A DNA stretch of 64,000 bases. Source: Oscillospiraceae bacterium (GTDB lineage Bacteria; Bacillota; Clostridia; Oscillospirales; CAG-272). The notes under the pieces are model-generated. The model was not told the origin of the DNA. It was given only the letters and a program-made list of their open reading frames with translations, and ran no database searches. Below, in pieces: positions 32,708-40,786 of this stretch. How positions within the stretch are numbered: the first letter of the stretch is position 1; every line of letters starts with the position of its first letter. The stretch lies in assembly GCA_015063895.1 (NCBI GenBank), contig SVTG01000001.1, forward strand, positions 77,260 through 141,259, written 5' to 3'. The position numbers were made by a program, and so were the translations under genes.

Positions 32708-32721
32708 CATGGAGGTTTATG

Positions 32722-34215
32722 ATGACAAAACACGTTTTTATTGCCAGCTTACAGCAGGAAACCAGTGCATTTAACCCTGTTATTTCTCCAAAAACCATGT
32801 TCTTTGACTTCAACTGTGAAGAATTGAAGGGCACGGAGGGCATGACGGGTGGCTTAGTAGATACCCTGTCAGCCGCCGAGGGCGTACGCGTCACCTACGG
32901 TCAATCCCTGGAGGCCGATAGCGGCGGTCCCCTGAACGATGCCGTATGGCAGAATTTCTTGAAGGGCGTGCTTGACGACATTGCCGCCAAGGGTCCCTTT
33001 GACGGTATCGCACTGGCGCTGCACGGCGCCACCAGCTCGCTGACGACCCCCGATATCTGCGGCGAGGTCGTTGCCGCCGTACGTGCGGCTGTGGGGGAAG
33101 CTGTGCCGATCGCCGTATCGCACGACCTGCACGCAAACGTCACCGCAAAAAGCGCAAAAAATGCCGACTATATCTGCGGTTACCACGAATATCCTCACCT
33201 TGACACCTACGAAACCGGCGTGCGCGCCGCAAAGCTTCTGTTAAAGCACATGGCAGGTGAAGTGCAAAAGACCGCCTACGCCGCCATTCCGATGATCGCC
33301 CCCGCACACGCCTATACCACCACTAAGGGCGCATTGCTGGCACTTGTCAACGATGCAAAGGCGATGGTTGAGCGCGGCGAGATCTCTGATTTCAGCTTGT
33401 TTGAGGCACAGCCCTGGCTGGACGTGCCCGAATTTGCCAGCGCCGTGATCGTGATCGCAAAGGACGAGGCAACCGCTACGCGCGTGGCAAACGATCTCGC
33501 GAGGCGCCATTTTGCCCTGCGCAAGGAGCTGCAGGGTCCCCCTCTTCTCAGCGTTGATGAGGTGATCAAAAAGGCACTTGCCAACAAAACGGGCAAGCCC
33601 GTGGTTCTGGTAGACTCCTCCGACTCAAGAGGTGCCGGGTCTACTGCCGACAGCGCCGCCGTGATCGAGGCACTGCTCCCCTATCGCGACGAGATCCGTG
33701 CAGCGGTTGGCGTGAGTGATGCACCCGCCGTGGAAAAAGCCTTTTCGCTTGGCGTCGGTGCCGTTGCCGACTTCACACTCGGTGCCACCGTAGCACCCAA
33801 GATCTCCAAGCCCGTCCTTGTGAAAAACGCACGCGTAAGAAGCCTGCACCTTGGCGACTTCACGGCTGTTGGTCCCCTTGCACGCGGCACACGCTCAAAT
33901 TGCGGTCTTGTGGCTGTGCTTGAGGTCGGCAAGATCCTGATCCAGGTATCCAAGCAGAGCGACAATGAAAAGGATATCGGCTTCTACCGCAGCTTTGGCA
34001 TTGATCCCGAATTTTGCCAGCTTGTCAGCGTCAAGGCCTGCACCTCGCTGCGTGCGGGATATACACCCATTTCCGCCGAGATCTGCAATGCAGATACGCC
34101 CGGTGCCACAGGCGCCGTTTTGACAAAGCTTGATTATCAGCAGCGCCCCGTACCCCTCTACCCCATGGAAGAGATCACCGAGGACGATATCGTAAAGGCT
34201 GTTTGCTACCGATAA
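32722..34215 (+). CDS. M81-family metallopeptidase (MlrC-like), copy 1
   Basis: A 497-residue protein of the MlrC/DUF1485 family. The N-terminal QQETSAFNP is typical, and metal-ligand motifs are visible in SHDLHANVT (Asp and His) and CGYHEYPHLDTYETG (His). The founding member, MlrC, cleaves linearised microcystin in Sphingomonas; most relatives have unknown substrates. GGAGG at 32711-32715 is 6 bases from ATG 32722 and only 3 from ATG 32719, so the second ATG is chosen. A closely similar copy follows 21 bases downstream. No signal peptide, so it is probably cytoplasmic. Confidence 0.88.
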   Translation: MTKHVFIASLQQETSAFNPVISPKTMFFDFNCEELKGTEGMTGGLVDTLSAAEGVRVTYGQSLEADSGGPLNDAVWQNFLKGVLDDIAAKGPFDGIALALHGATSSLTTPDICGEVVAAVRAAVGEAVPIAVSHDLHANVTAKSAKNADYICGYHEYPHLDTYETGVRAAKLLLKHMAGEVQKTAYAAIPMIAPAHAYTTTKGALLALVNDAKAMVERGEISDFSLFEAQPWLDVPEFASAVIVIAKDEATATRVANDLARRHFALRKELQGPPLLSVDEVIKKALANKTGKPVVLVDSSDSRGAGSTADSAAVIEALLPYRDEIRAAVGVSDAPAVEKAFSLGVGAVADFTLGATVAPKISKPVLVKNARVRSLHLGDFTAVGPLARGTRSNCGLVAVLEVGKILIQVSKQSDNEKDIGFYRSFGIDPEFCQLVSVKACTSLRAGYTPISAEICNADTPGATGAVLTKLDYQQRPVPLYPMEEITEDDIVKAVCYR

Positions 34216-34236
34216 GCGGTTTTTTGGAGGTTTATG

Positions 34237-35727
34237 ATGAACAAAAGCATTTATATTGCGGGGATTCAGCAGGAAACCAGCGCGTTTAATCCTGTTGTTT
34301 CCACAAAAGCCATATTCAAGGACTATAACTGTGAGGAGCTGAAGGGTACGCGCGGTATGATGGGCGGTATGGTAGATACACTTTTTGCCGCCAACGTGCA
34401 GCTGACCTACGGGCAATCCTTAGGTGCTGCCAGCGCAGGCCCCATTGACGATGCCGTATGGCAGAATTTTTTAAAGGGCGTGCTTGCTGACATTGCCGCA
34501 AAAGGCCCCTTCGACGGCATTGCACTTGTGATGCACGGTGCCACCAGCTCGCTTTCCACCCCGGACGTGTGCGGTGAGATCGTTGCCGCCGTACGCGCGG
34601 CTGTGGGGGAAGCTGTACCGATCGCGGTATCACACGACCTACACGCGAACGTTACCCAAAAAAGCGCAAAAAATGCCGACTATATCTGCGGTTACCACGA
34701 ATATCCCCATCTTGATATCTATGAAACCGGCGTGCGCGCCGCAAAGCTTCTGTTAAAGCACCTGGCAGGTGAAGCGCAAAAGACCGCCTACGCCGCCATT
34801 CCGATGATTGCCCCCGCGCACGCCTACACCACCACAAAGGGCGCACTGCTCGCGCTTATAAACGACGCAAAGGCCATGGTGGAAAGAGGCGAGATCGCGG
34901 ACTTCAGCTTGTTTGAGGCGCAGCCCTGGCTGGACGTGCCCGAATTTGCCAGCGCCGTGCTTGTAACCGCCAAGGACGAGGCAACCGCTACGCGCGTGGC
35001 AAACGACCTTGCGAGGCGCCATTTTGCCCTGCGCAAGGAGCTGCAGGGTGAGCCTCTGCTGACCGTTGACGAGGTCATCAAGCGGGCTCTTGCCAACAAA
35101 ACGGGCAAGCCCGTGGTGCTGGTAGACTCCTCCGATTCAAGAGGTGCCGGGTCTACGACCGACAGCGCCGCTGTCCTGGAAGCGCTGCTGCCCTACCGCG
35201 ATGAGATCCGTGCGGCCGTGGGTGTCAGTGATATCCCCGCCGTTGAAAAAGCCTTTTCGCTTGGCGTCGGTGCCGTTGCCGACTTCACGCTCGGCGCGAC
35301 GATCGCCCCCTCGCTTTTCAAACCCGTTCACGTTAAAAACGCGCGCATACGCAGCCTGCACCTCGGCGATTTTGTCATGGCAGGCCCGATCGGACGCGGC
35401 GGACGCGCAAATTGCGGCCGCGTGGCGGTTCTTGAGGTCGGAAAGATCCTGGTTCACGTATCCGAGATCAGCGACGGCACAAGGGATATCAACTATTTCC
35501 GCAGCTTTGGCATCGATCCCGAATTTTGCCAGCTTGTCAGCGTCAAGGCCTGCACCTCGCTGCGTGCGGGATATACGCCGATCGCCGCCGAGTTCTGCAA
35601 CACCGACACGCCCGGTGCCGCAGGTGCTGTTTTGACAAAGCTTGATTATCAGCAGCGCCCCGTGCCGCTTTACCCTTTTGAGGAAATTAACGAGGGCGAT
35701 ATTCAAGCGGCCGTTTGCTATCGCTAA
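34237..35727 (+). CDS. M81-family metallopeptidase (MlrC-like), copy 2
   Basis: A 496-residue tandem paralogue of the preceding gene, alike along the whole length with all metal-ligand motifs retained (SHDLHANVT, CGYHEYPHLDIYETG). The leader GGAGGTTTATGATGA is the same as in copy 1, so the duplication included the RBS. Again the second ATG (34237) has the better spacing. Stretches of near-identical DNA, such as that encoding KDEATATRVANDLARRHFAL, alternate with diverged stretches, for example residues around SLFKPVHVKNARIRS. Different substrate preference of the two copies is possible but untested. Confidence 0.88.
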   Translation: MNKSIYIAGIQQETSAFNPVVSTKAIFKDYNCEELKGTRGMMGGMVDTLFAANVQLTYGQSLGAASAGPIDDAVWQNFLKGVLADIAAKGPFDGIALVMHGATSSLSTPDVCGEIVAAVRAAVGEAVPIAVSHDLHANVTQKSAKNADYICGYHEYPHLDIYETGVRAAKLLLKHLAGEAQKTAYAAIPMIAPAHAYTTTKGALLALINDAKAMVERGEIADFSLFEAQPWLDVPEFASAVLVTAKDEATATRVANDLARRHFALRKELQGEPLLTVDEVIKRALANKTGKPVVLVDSSDSRGAGSTTDSAAVLEALLPYRDEIRAAVGVSDIPAVEKAFSLGVGAVADFTLGATIAPSLFKPVHVKNARIRSLHLGDFVMAGPIGRGGRANCGRVAVLEVGKILVHVSEISDGTRDINYFRSFGIDPEFCQLVSVKACTSLRAGYTPIAAEFCNTDTPGAAGAVLTKLDYQQRPVPLYPFEEINEGDIQAAVCYR

Positions 35728-37827: not shown

Positions 37828-37835
37828 ACAATGCA

Positions 37836-37866
37836 AAAACCACCTATGCACAGCATAGGTGGTTTT
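37836..37866. terminator. Bidirectional terminator between the M81 operon and the peptidase-like gene
   Basis: AAAACCACCTATG / CATAGGTGGTTTT, 13-bp perfect stem with loop CACAG; T-runs follow on both strands, so it serves both convergent units. Confidence 0.92.
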
Positions 37867-37889
37867 CTTTCTTTATCAAATCATATATT

Positions 37890-38363
37890 TCAAGACGTTT
37901 TCCGTTTTACAAGGCGGCGCAAAAGCCCCCACGTGCGACGCGGCAAAAAGCGAAGGCGTCGCAATGGAAAAACGCAGTGCCAAAAGCTGTAAAAGCGATA
38001 CGAAAAAGCACCAAGCTCAACACGCTTCTCACCGCGATAATAGGCGCTGACGACAGCCACCACGCTTTCGCGCGGCACACCGTATTCAAGGGCGGTTTGG
38101 TTATCGCCGCAAAACACGGGCCTGCCCTCTTGATCCCATTTGATCAGGCGATGCAGCACGTACGCACCGTTTTCCCTACGATATAGGCAAATATCGCGCT
38201 TTTTGAGCACGCTTGGTGCCACCAAAATCACGCTGTCACGTCCCTCTTTCAAGAGCGGCAGCATACTGGTGCCACGCGGAAAAAGACGGAATTCGCCCCC
38301 CTCACCGATGACCTCCTTGATAAGGGGCACCAGCTCGTTCATGGAAAAAGCGTTATTCTGCAA
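37890..38363 (-). CDS. S24/S26-family signal-peptidase-like protein
   Basis: A 157-residue protein with the LexA/signal-peptidase fold: the nucleophile region PRGTSMLPLL (Ser33), then DSVILVAP, KKRDICLYRR, and YVLHRLIKW, and a basic C-terminus ending KRKTS. It lacks the N-terminal membrane anchor of type I signal peptidases, and I cannot place the catalytic lysine with confidence. The start is taken as TTG 38363, which overlaps the PqqD-like gene and has AGGGGG about 10 bases ahead; ATG 38342 is an alternative. It is the last gene of the glyS-kinase-PqqD unit. Confidence 0.75.
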   Translation of the reverse strand: MQNNAFSMNELVPLIKEVIGEGGEFRLFPRGTSMLPLLKEGRDSVILVAPSVLKKRDICLYRRENGAYVLHRLIKWDQEGRPVFCGDNQTALEYGVPRESVVAVVSAYYRGEKRVELGAFSYRFYSFWHCVFPLRRLRFLPRRTWGLLRRLVKRKTS

Positions 38364-38619
38364 CGGCGCCTACCCCCTTCAGGGTATCAAGGAAGGCCAC
38401 GGCATGTGCCTTAGCGGTCTCGGCGTCAATCTCATAGGCATTTGTGATCGCCCCGACAAGCTCGTCAAGCGTGATATCGTTTTCAAGCATATCCCAGATA
38501 AAGCTACCCGTACCGTTTACCGAGATCATACCGTTAAAGCGCTTGGTAGCGGCGCCAACGGCCACGATCACGTATTGCGGGCCTATTTTGCGTTTGATAA
38601 AATCCCTACTCCGTTTCAC
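38353..38619 (-). CDS. PqqD-like peptide chaperone / RiPP recognition element
   Basis: An 88-residue protein with the PqqD fold signature: FNGMISVNGTGSFIWDMLEND followed by DELVGAITNAYEID and AFLDTLKGVG. PqqD proteins bind leader peptides and hand them to modifying enzymes such as radical SAM proteins; stand-alone ones also sit beside HPr-kinase-like genes. The frame could begin at GTG 38631, but the AAAGGAG at 38639-38633 is then one base away, so GTG 38619 is preferred; spacing (13) is still long. It overlaps the kinase 3' end and the peptidase-like 5' end, a tightly coupled trio. No precursor peptide gene was found. Confidence 0.78.
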   Translation of the reverse strand: MKRSRDFIKRKIGPQYVIVAVGAATKRFNGMISVNGTGSFIWDMLENDITLDELVGAITNAYEIDAETAKAHAVAFLDTLKGVGAVAE

Positions 38620-39337
38620 AGTCGTTTCCACTCTCCTTTACATACATTCCCTGAAAGGCTACGATCGCCGCCTCGGGCAGCATATTGCAATGCAACAAAT
38701 ACGTGGGGGTGCTTGTCACCAGCGAATCAAGCAGCTCAAGAAAGCGCTCGGCCATCTCCTGCTCCTCGGGCATCAGCACCTGTCCGAACAGGCGCGAGAT
38801 CATTTGTGCGCTCTCAAGAGGTGCGATGGTATTTTCCTTGCCGCGCTCCAAAAAGCAGATCGCCTGCAGGGGAACACTGACGTTACCGCCCAGCTTTTCC
38901 TTGCCGCGCCACGGCGTGCCGTAAGCGATCCATTTGCCTTCCCTGCGGCGCAAGATCGGCTTATCGCCGTTAATAAAGAAGACGCGCTCACCAAATACCT
39001 GCTGCCAAAGCGCCGTGTGCGTGGATTTTCCCGTGCCGCTGTGAGCGGCAAAGGCATAGCCCTTGCCGTCACAGGAAATGACGGAAGCGTGAAAGACCAT
39101 CGCATCAAAGCGCGGCAGCTGCAGGGCGATCTGGCGATAGACGCAAATAGACTCCAAATACCCGTCAGAAGAGCTGTAGGGATTATCCTCGCGCTCCCTC
39201 TCAAGCTCCTCGTCGCTGACACGAACGGTGATATCCGCCACGTCAAACTCAGCTAAAAATTCGCGGCAAAAATCAAACACGAAAGGATACCTATTCTCTA
39301 TTGTCACGTTCAAATCTGCGATACGAATACCAAACAT
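38606..39337 (-). CDS. HPr-kinase-like serine kinase (PqqD-associated)
   Basis: A 243-residue protein with a Walker A AAHSGTGKSTH at residues about 97-107 and a Walker-B-like FFINGDKPILRR, the pattern of HprK-related kinases found with PqqD proteins and of lasso-peptide kinases. The N-terminal half (about 1-80) is a separate mixed domain. It lacks the N-terminal DRTGG-type domain of true HPr kinase/phosphorylase, so it is not the carbon-control enzyme. It starts at ATG 39337 behind AAAGGATATC, 33 bases after glyS, and overlaps the PqqD-like gene. The substrate, likely a peptide Ser/Thr, is unknown. Confidence 0.8.
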   Translation of the reverse strand: MFGIRIADLNVTIENRYPFVFDFCREFLAEFDVADITVRVSDEELEREREDNPYSSSDGYLESICVYRQIALQLPRFDAMVFHASVISCDGKGYAFAAHSGTGKSTHTALWQQVFGERVFFINGDKPILRRREGKWIAYGTPWRGKEKLGGNVSVPLQAICFLERGKENTIAPLESAQMISRLFGQVLMPEEQEMAERFLELLDSLVTSTPTYLLHCNMLPEAAIVAFQGMYVKESGNDCETE

Positions 39338-39370: not shown

Positions 39371-40786
39371 TCAAAATGCAAGACGCTTTTCAATATAAGC
39401 CTTGAGCTCGCTGATGGGCAAGCGCACCTGCTCCATGGTGTCACGGTCACGTACCGTTACGCAGTTATCGGCAGGCTTTTCGGCGTCACCCACAGTCTCA
39501 AAGTCAACGGTCACGCAAAGAGGCGTACCGATCTCGTCCTCACGGCGGTAGCGCTTACCGATCGAGCCCGTCTCGTCGTAATCAACGGCAAAATATTTTG
39601 CCAGCTCGTCGCGCACCTCGAGTGCTTTTTCCGAGAGCTTTTTGGAAAGAGGCAGCACTGCCACCTTGTAGGGGGCAAGCGCGGGGTGCAGGCGGAGTAC
39701 CACACGGGTATCGTTCTTAGCCGCGTCGATCACCTCTTCGTCGTACGCATCAACCAGGAAAGCAAGCGCCACACGGTCAGCACCAAGAGAGGGCTCTACT
39801 ACGTAGGGCACGTAATGCTCGCCCGTTTCGGGGTCAAAATAGGTCAGATCCTTGCCGCTGTGCTTGGCGTGCTGAGAAAGGTCGTAATCGGTGCGGTCAG
39901 CAATGCCCCACAGCTCGCCCCAGCCAAACGGGAACAGGAACTCAAAGTCGGTGGTGCCCTTCGAATAGAAGGCAAGCTCCTCGGGATCATGGTCGCGCAA
40001 ACGCAGATTCTCTTCTCTCATACCGAGATCAAGGAGCCACTTCTTGCAATAATCCTTCCAGTATGCAAACCATTCAAGGTCGGTGCCGGGCTTGCAGAAG
40101 AACTCCAGCTCCATCTGTTCAAATTCGCGGGTACGGAAGGTGAAGTTACCGGGCGTGATCTCGTTACGGAAGGATTTACCGATCTGGCACACACCAAAGG
40201 GGAGCTTGCGACGTGTGGAGCGCTGGATCGCGGGGAAATTCACAAAAATACCCTGTGCGGTCTCGGGACGAAGATATACGGTGTTGGCGCTATCCTCGGT
40301 AACACCGATGAAGGTTTTGAACATCAGGTTGAACTTTTTAATGGCGGTAAAATCCTGCTTACCGCAGGTGGGGCAAACGATACCCTTTTCCTCAATGTAA
40401 GCAGACATCTGCTCAAAGCTCCAGCCTGCGGGATTGTCGTCAAGGCCGTTTTCAAAGGCATATTCCTCGATCAGCTTATCTGCACGGTGACGCGCCTTGC
40501 AGGCCTTGCAGTCCATCAAAGGATCGGAAAAGCCGCCCACGTGACCGGAGGCCACCCAAGCCTCGGGGTTCATAATGATCGCACTGTCAAGCCCCACGTT
40601 ATAACGGCTTTCCTGTACGAACTTTTTCCACCAAGCGCGCTTGACGTTGTTTTTGAATTCTACGCCAAGGGGGCCGTAATCCCAAGAGTTGGCAAGGCCG
40701 CCGTAAATCTCAGACCCGGGGAAGATAAAGCCACGGTTCTTGCAAAGCGCTACGATTTTTTCCATTGTTTTTTCGCTGTTGTTCAT
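39371..40786 (-). CDS. glyS: Glycyl-tRNA synthetase (homodimeric class II type)
   Basis: A 471-residue single-chain enzyme of the eukaryotic/archaeal alpha-2 type, not the bacterial GlyQ-GlyS tetramer. Visible are the N-terminal [20 protein letters not shown], class II motif 2 region ([20 protein letters not shown]), motif 3 around [12 protein letters not shown], a CPTCG zinc-like pair, and the C-terminal anticodon-binding domain ([14 protein letters not shown]). Promoter with full consensus lies directly upstream; no T-box leader fits in the 77-base gap. The kinase/PqqD/peptidase trio is downstream in the same transcript. Confidence 0.95.

What the first reader, a model, noticed from the sequence alone, without database searches (positions are those of the whole stretch)
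37890..39337. HPr-kinase-like / PqqD-like / S24-S26-peptidase-like cassette without visible substrate, in the glyS operon
Three overlapping genes encode an HprK-related kinase (Walker A HSGTGKST, no phosphorylase domain), a stand-alone PqqD-type recognition protein, and a soluble signal-peptidase-like protein. These types of proteins occur in RiPP and lasso-peptide systems, yet no radical SAM enzyme, transporter or precursor ORF is visible, and the trio is expressed from the consensus glyS promoter. It could be a compact peptide-phosphorylation or peptide-cleavage system with a remote substrate. Gene identities come from sequence motifs; the role is inferred.
Basis: partly seen in the sequence, partly recalled or inferred. 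Interest (0 to 1): 0.72.

Follow-up and report, generated by a model that had tools for sequence, protein, structure and literature searches.

The report
Kinase station with far-off peptide substrates
In a bacterium whose nearest named relatives are Clostridia, three overlapping genes (a predicted kinase, a predicted peptide-binding protein and a signal-peptidase-like protein) are likely the processing station for two near-identical 42-residue peptides encoded on other contigs, each directly behind the gene of a giant protein predicted to be secreted, which would tie a newly described class of phosphorylated peptides to the cell surface.

Summary
The trio is real: an HprK/PEPCK-fold kinase (K), a stand-alone PqqD/RRE protein (P) and a soluble S26-like peptidase (S), in one unit with glyS. 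It corresponds to the LppK-LppB-LppS core of linear polyphosphorylated peptides (LPPs), a RiPP family published in May 2026 (PMC13381572). The missing substrate was found: small peptides with a conserved leader, Y-x-x-P-x-x-E-[VI]-[VI]-x-F-x-x-x-D-[VI]-I-T-T-S. This genome encodes two near-identical 42-aa copies on other contigs, each 20 nt behind an 1820-1838-aa ORF with a signal-like start. Among 197 genomes of the order, 39 of the 42 with such a peptide carry K (56 of 197 carry K); counting only peptides more than 10 kb from K, 33 of 36. In the family it is 53 of 53 (93 of 146 carry K). A column-shuffled leader found 0 of 197. The late leader Ser is Ser in 88 of 90 aligned stretches and never Thr, as expected of the LppK acceptor. 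Unlike described LPPs, the precursors mostly lie elsewhere in the genome, often behind large ORFs, with another leader motif and no exporter or transferase beside the trio. Phosphorylation, cleavage and surface role are inferred. New variant of a known kind.

The parts
38606..39337 (-). K: HprK/PEPCK-fold kinase, 243 aa (LppK-like)
38353..38631 (-). P: stand-alone PqqD/RRE protein, 92 aa (88 aa from the GTG at 38619) (LppB-like)
37890..38363 (-). S: soluble S26/SipW-like peptidase, 157 aa, Ser33 and His71 kept (LppS-like)
39371..40786 (-). glyS (glycine--tRNA ligase), first gene of the unit
   Evidence: a 471-aa gene with the same start precedes K also in L003, L004, L005, L085
40831..40859 (-). 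consensus promoter TTGACA-17-TATAAT before glyS
   Evidence: 12 of 12 match; not proof of function
37835..37867 (-). intrinsic-terminator-like hairpin behind S, 15 pairs

Best explanation
The K-P-S trio is likely an LPP-like maturation station that acts in trans on small leader peptides encoded elsewhere in the genome, here probably two near-identical 42-aa peptides, each encoded 20 nt behind the gene of a giant protein predicted to be secreted. Inferred steps: P (an RRE) binds the Y-x-x-P leader; K transfers phosphate from ATP to the near-invariant Ser of D-[VI]-I-T-T-S (Ser24 of the own peptides); S, helped by P, cuts the leader two residues before that Ser (DII|TTS, by analogy with LppS); the acidic phosphorylated core is exported and works at the cell surface with the giant protein. 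Shown here: the genes, predicted folds, conserved catalytic residues, leader conservation, the two own-genome ORFs with ribosome-binding sites, co-occurrence and neighbourhoods. Not shown: any chemistry, an exporter in this genome, or the surface role.
For: K, P and S match the enzyme set LppK-LppB-LppS, for which phosphorylation of core Ser3, RRE binding of YxxP and RRE-dependent cleavage were measured (PMC13381572). 30 of 152 distinct K loci hold a leader peptide ORF at E below 1e-3 on the fetched stretch, 26 within about 3 kb of K. Own genome: two leader ORFs at E 1e-6, AAAGGAGG before the ATG. Order: 39 of 42 leader+ genomes are K+ (56 of 197 K+; p 3e-24); remote peptides only, 33 of 36 (p 4e-19). 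Family: 53 of 53 (93 of 146 K+; p 1.4e-14); without eight genomes that gave rows to the profile, 45 of 45 (p 6e-13). Shuffled profile: 0 of 197. Leader conserved, core variable in the genus: 19-24 of 24 against 2-3 of 18-19. Late Ser: 88 of 90, others G and D, no Thr. The Tyr-contacting Asp70 of LppB is Asp in 97 of 115 P proteins. Of 78 peptides with room upstream, 44 lie within 60 nt behind an ORF of 300 aa or more, against 44 of 294 other small genes.
Against: 17 of 56 K+ genomes of the order and 40 of 93 of the family have no leader match, among them G279 of the same genus. G066, G101 and G154 have the peptide but no K match. The leader is not the published LPP motif (P-x6-F here, P-x9-F there). 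The window P has His where LppB has Asp70. S has Asp87 and Glu93 conserved, and which of them equals LppS Asp93 is not settled. The exporter of this genome was not sought. Fisher tests ignore shared ancestry, and the profile was trained on peptides found near K. All neighbourhood counts rest on a home-made gene caller.
Confidence: 0.74

Rival explanations
1. Station and peptides are as above, but S cuts directly after the conserved Ser (recalled signal-peptidase rule: small residues at -3 and -1, here T and S), and K phosphorylates another Ser or Thr of the variable core.
For: T at -3 in 61 and S at -1 in 88 of about 90 aligned stretches, often followed by G (36); 75 of 90 cores contain S or T.
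Against: A -1 site would tolerate Ala or Gly; here it is Ser in 88 of 90. LppS cuts two residues before the acceptor Ser, and LppK refuses Thr.
Confidence: 0.14
2. The leader peptides are accessory products of surface-protein operons and not substrates of K-P-S; both simply occur in the same surface-rich lineages.
For: Most peptides (69 of 78) are not near K; no chemistry was tested; many K+ genomes lack a leader match.
Against: In 30 of 152 K loci the peptide is on the same fetched stretch, mostly within 3 kb of K; the leader has the Y-x-x-P motif that discrete RREs bind; 53 of 53 leader+ genomes of the family are K+.
Confidence: 0.08
3. The trio belongs to a lasso-peptide pathway whose cyclase and protease lie elsewhere.
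For: P is nearest to lasso B1 models; rumen lasso clusters carry HPr kinase, PqqD and nucleotidyltransferase genes (PMC7533575, passages).
Against: No Transglut_core3 (B2) match in this genome. Of four Asn_synthase matches only one covers the model, a 679-aa protein with glutamine amidotransferase domains, i.e. ordinary AsnB. The assembly is 93% complete, so absence is not proof.
Confidence: 0.03

Closest known systems
Linear polyphosphorylated peptides (LPP; lppA-K-B-S-D-N of Paenibacillus alginolyticus; PMC13381572, abstract and sections 6-9, 11, 12, 16 read)
   Same: HprK-like kinase, discrete RRE, SpI/SipW-like serine peptidase, no lasso cyclase, YxxP leader, variable core, conserved Ser late in the conserved region; MsbA-like exporter and NTP transferase in some relatives.
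   Different: Precursors remote from the trio in the window genome and mostly so in the order (69 of 78 matches); another leader consensus; exporter and transferase not beside the window trio; precursors often behind large ORFs; stalk proteins with core-like tails; radical SAM enzyme in two loci. The paper looked for precursors within 5 kb of the clusters.
Paeninodin-like lasso peptides (PMC8498205 and PMC7533575, passages only)
   Same: HPr-kinase homologue, PqqD-type B1, NTP transferase, Y/W-x-x-P leader.
   Different: No B2 protease and no lasso-type cyclase found in this genome; an S26-like peptidase instead.
SynChlorMet cassette and HprK-related kinases A/B (NCBIfam TIGR04249, TIGR04352, TIGR04355; TIGR04248 for the PqqD-like protein)
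   Same: HprK-like kinase, and for SynChlorMet a PqqD-like protein, as weak best-named hits.
   Different: All matches are far below the curated cut-offs; the systems' other parts were not searched.

Membership tests
LPP (linear polyphosphorylated peptides) | HprK-like kinase | tested here: met
   Predicted fold matches HprK/P and PEPCK; Walker A kept in 35 homologues
LPP (linear polyphosphorylated peptides) | Discrete RRE | tested here: met
   PF05402 E 2.4e-16; LppB chain 9x8z is second PDB hit, weak, E 0.0028; Asn33 kept, Asp70 replaced by His in the window
LPP (linear polyphosphorylated peptides) | SpI-like serine peptidase with Ser, His and acid | tested here: inconclusive
   Fold and Ser33/His71 met; the acid (Asp87 or Glu93) was not aligned to LppS Asp93
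LPP (linear polyphosphorylated peptides) | MsbA-like exporter and NTP transferase in the same cluster | tested here: not met
   Absent beside the window trio. In 111 relatives with room, 37 have an NTP_transf_5 gene or an ABC protein of 450 aa or more within 6 kb. Two NTP_transf_5 genes elsewhere in the genome
LPP (linear polyphosphorylated peptides) | Precursor motif YxxPxVLxHQxIxFETxxS | tested here: not met
   Here Y-x-x-P and a late conserved Ser, but P-x6-F and D-[VI]-I-T-T-S; the comparison is with the motif as printed
LPP (linear polyphosphorylated peptides) | Phosphorylated, leader-cleaved linear core | not testable with these tools
   Needs expression and mass spectrometry
Lasso peptides | B2 transglutaminase-like protease | tested here: not met
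   No PF13471 match in the own genome (93% complete)
Lasso peptides | Asn-synthetase-like cyclase | tested here: not met
   The only full-length Asn_synthase match is an AsnB with GATase_6/7 domains
RiPP precursors in general | Conserved N-terminal leader with a variable core | tested here: met
   Leader 19-24 of 24, core 2-3 of 18-19 within the genus; 90 distinct peptides share the leader

The most novel reading that the evidence does not exclude
One central kinase-RRE-peptidase station serves dispersed phosphopeptide precursors, each built into an operon with its own giant surface protein. The mature phosphopeptide, whose C-terminal motif is copied on the tails of membrane- or S-layer-anchored stalk proteins, acts as a ligand or clip in assembling or anchoring the giant protein. 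LPP-type peptides would then be parts of the bacterial surface and not diffusible antibiotics.
Probability: 0.3. Interest if true: 0.85.

Novelty: new variant of a known kind. Interest (0 to 1): 0.68.

Why it matters
The paper that describes LPPs says their biological roles are unknown, and it looked for precursors only within 5 kb of the clusters. Here most leader matches (69 of 78) are not near the kinase, and 44 of 78 peptides with room upstream lie directly behind a large ORF (44 of 294 other small genes do). Of those 44 large ORFs, 30 are complete at the start and 25 of these have a hydrophobic N-terminal stretch. That gives a first testable guess at function, a way to find the substrates of orphan RiPP enzymes by leader profile, and one defined Ser to test.

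Tried and rejected
A lasso pathway was rejected: no B2 match and only an ordinary AsnB in the own genome. An ordinary HPr-kinase role was set aside because K's neighbours are an RRE and a peptidase; it was not tested otherwise. YjeF_N and SseB genes that follow the trio in some loci were judged unrelated neighbours. The second PqqD hit of this genome (C9) lies in a SCIFF maturase. The first greedy gene caller picked antisense ORFs and was replaced by codon-usage calling. The exporter label also caught smaller ABC ATPases: 41 of 111 loci had transferase or any such match, 37 of 111 when at least 450 aa is asked for. PDB sequence searches with K, S and the leader profile gave nothing useful. Families not listed by the structural second looks are not excluded.

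Core-tail matching between peptides and stalk proteins: 16 pairs from 15 peptides scored 348 against 222.8 (sd 22.3) by permutation, p 5e-5, but p 0.02 without the three strongest pairs; an earlier set of 15 pairs gave p 2e-4. Pairs are few, L208 and L214 come from one genome, and the filter for stalk proteins is ad hoc, so this is suggestive only. The shuffled-leader control carries the tool's note that an empty answer alone shows little; the true profile on the same genomes is the comparison.

Literature: eight searches in the open PMC library. Only PMC13381572 showed this enzyme set with an SpI-like peptidase. The sections and passages I saw of it do not mention remote precursors or giant surface proteins; its supplements were not seen. 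PMC12710340, PMC7533575 and PMC8498205 were seen as passages.

Full report

Relatives. With the window this is 161 loci, 152 distinct by K. Of 145 with at least 1.2 kb behind K, P adjoins in 110, S in 95 and both in 86. Of 111 with at least 4.5 kb, 37 have an NTP_transf_5-like gene or an ABC protein of 450 aa or more within 6 kb, 6 have both (model identity). The trio is the constant part; exporter and transferase are optional.

The substrate. In 30 of the 152 K loci the fetched stretch holds a short ORF with a common leader (E below 1e-3), in 26 within about 3 kb of K. A profile of it found two ORFs in the window's own genome, on contigs C23 and C17, not on C7 where the window lies: MKKIYEIPTSEL[V/I]YVATCDIITTSPTEDTEEDPGFGGNASVG. 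Each lies 20 nt behind an ORF of 1838 or 1820 aa whose N-terminus looks like a signal peptide (by eye; the 1838-aa one has no Pfam match), with AAAGGAGG before the ATG. Of three other genomes of the genus that were drawn, two have the same kind of leader with a different core, behind a 1001- or 571-aa ORF: leader identity 19-24 of 24, core identity 2-3 of 18-19. The third, G279, has K but no leader match.

Co-occurrence. On the same 197 genomes of the order, 56 have K, 42 the leader and 39 both (p 3e-24). Of 78 leader matches, 9 lie within 10 kb of K and 69 do not. With the 69 alone, 33 of 36 genomes are K+ (p 4e-19); leaving out ten genomes (the own one and those with a peptide near K), 29 of 32 (p 7e-19). 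In 146 genomes of the family all 53 leader+ genomes are among the 93 K+ (p 1.4e-14); without the eight that gave rows to the profile, 45 of 45 (p 6e-13). The column-shuffled profile found 0 of 197. Limits: Fisher tests ignore ancestry; 17 of 56 and 40 of 93 K+ genomes have no match; G066, G101 and G154 are leader+ without K.

Anatomy of the peptides. Over 90 distinct peptides (up to 92 aligned stretches) the leader reads Y(69)/F(17)-x-x-P(62)-x-[IMLV]-E(74)-[IV]-[IV]-x-F(62)-x-x-x-D(91)-[VI]-I(75)-T(61)-T(59)-S(88). Residues after that Ser number 17 at the median, rich in G, D and E. Of 78 peptides with more than 1 kb upstream, 44 lie within 60 nt behind a same-strand ORF of 300 aa or more, against 44 of 294 other small genes of the same loci (p 7e-13). 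Of the 44 ORFs, 30 are complete at the start, 25 of these with a hydrophobic N-terminal stretch, median length of the 30 being 970 aa. Four large proteins were scanned with Pfam: L199 has Flg_new_2, aBig_2, LTD and cadherin-like domains, L197 a beta-helix, L203 two matches below cut-off, L195 none. In L202 and L203 the peptide contains Cys and the next gene is a radical SAM enzyme, in L203 nearest to SPASM RiPP maturases, below cut-off.

Stalk proteins. Several loci also encode a small protein with a signal-like N-terminus, in three scanned cases SLH domains (L197, L203, L211), a linker rich in acidic, Ser/Thr or Pro residues, and a tail like the peptide core, for example EGDNGTGWG in both proteins of L197 and ELPFVPA in both of L048. 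Statistically this is modest (Tried and rejected).

How it works. The LPP paper reports that LppK puts phosphates on Ser3 of the core and not on Thr or Tyr there, that LppS cuts two residues before that Ser, that the cut needs LppB, and that LppB holds the leader Tyr and Pro. Mapped here, the late Ser (never Thr) would be the acceptor and the cut would fall at DII|TTS. LppB Asp70, which contacts the Tyr, is Asp in 97 of 115 P proteins but His in the window; Asn33 is kept in 109 of 115. These steps are inference by homology. An exporter of this genome was not sought; two NTP_transf_5 genes lie in other loci.

Filing. The enzymes are of the LPP kind, but the printed precursor motif and the cluster composition are not met, so I call it an LPP-like variant and not an LPP member. 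Confidence that it works like LPP on the remote peptides is about 0.74; the surface role is a guess at about 0.3.

Noticed in passing
L202 4873-6192 (-) and L203 8558-9883 (+): Radical SAM enzyme directly behind a Cys-containing leader peptide, in L203 nearest to SPASM RiPP maturases but below cut-off: perhaps a thioether-forming variant of the system.
   Followed up: partly
L070, L072, L076 (gene directly upstream of K): Small secreted-looking proteins with dockerin-like repeats (by eye) overlap the K start and end in ..HKIYQP..HKIFQP or ..AEIIRP, without a leader peptide.
   Followed up: no
G000:C16:9182-9898 (-) and G000:C9:32262-32996 (+) (L263, L264): Two NTP_transf_5 (LppN-like) genes of this genome, in loci that look like polysaccharide biosynthesis by eye.
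   Followed up: partly
L265 6325-7903 (-): A standard SCIFF peptide and its thioether maturase in the same genome.
   Followed up: yes
window 32719-35727 (+): Two tandem, similar 497-498-aa ORFs; the first is an M81/MlrC-family protein.
   Followed up: no
relatives G219, G233, G273, G315, G282, G218, G207, G213, G322: K matches with one in-frame stop, perhaps decaying copies or assembly errors.
   Followed up: no
L195-L214, C-termini of the large proteins: Many large proteins before the peptide end in a similar stretch (roughly Y-x-x-x...L-x-x-A-x-x-x-Y-x-x-A-x-x-Y, by eye); a shared C-terminal domain is likely but was not modelled.
   Followed up: no
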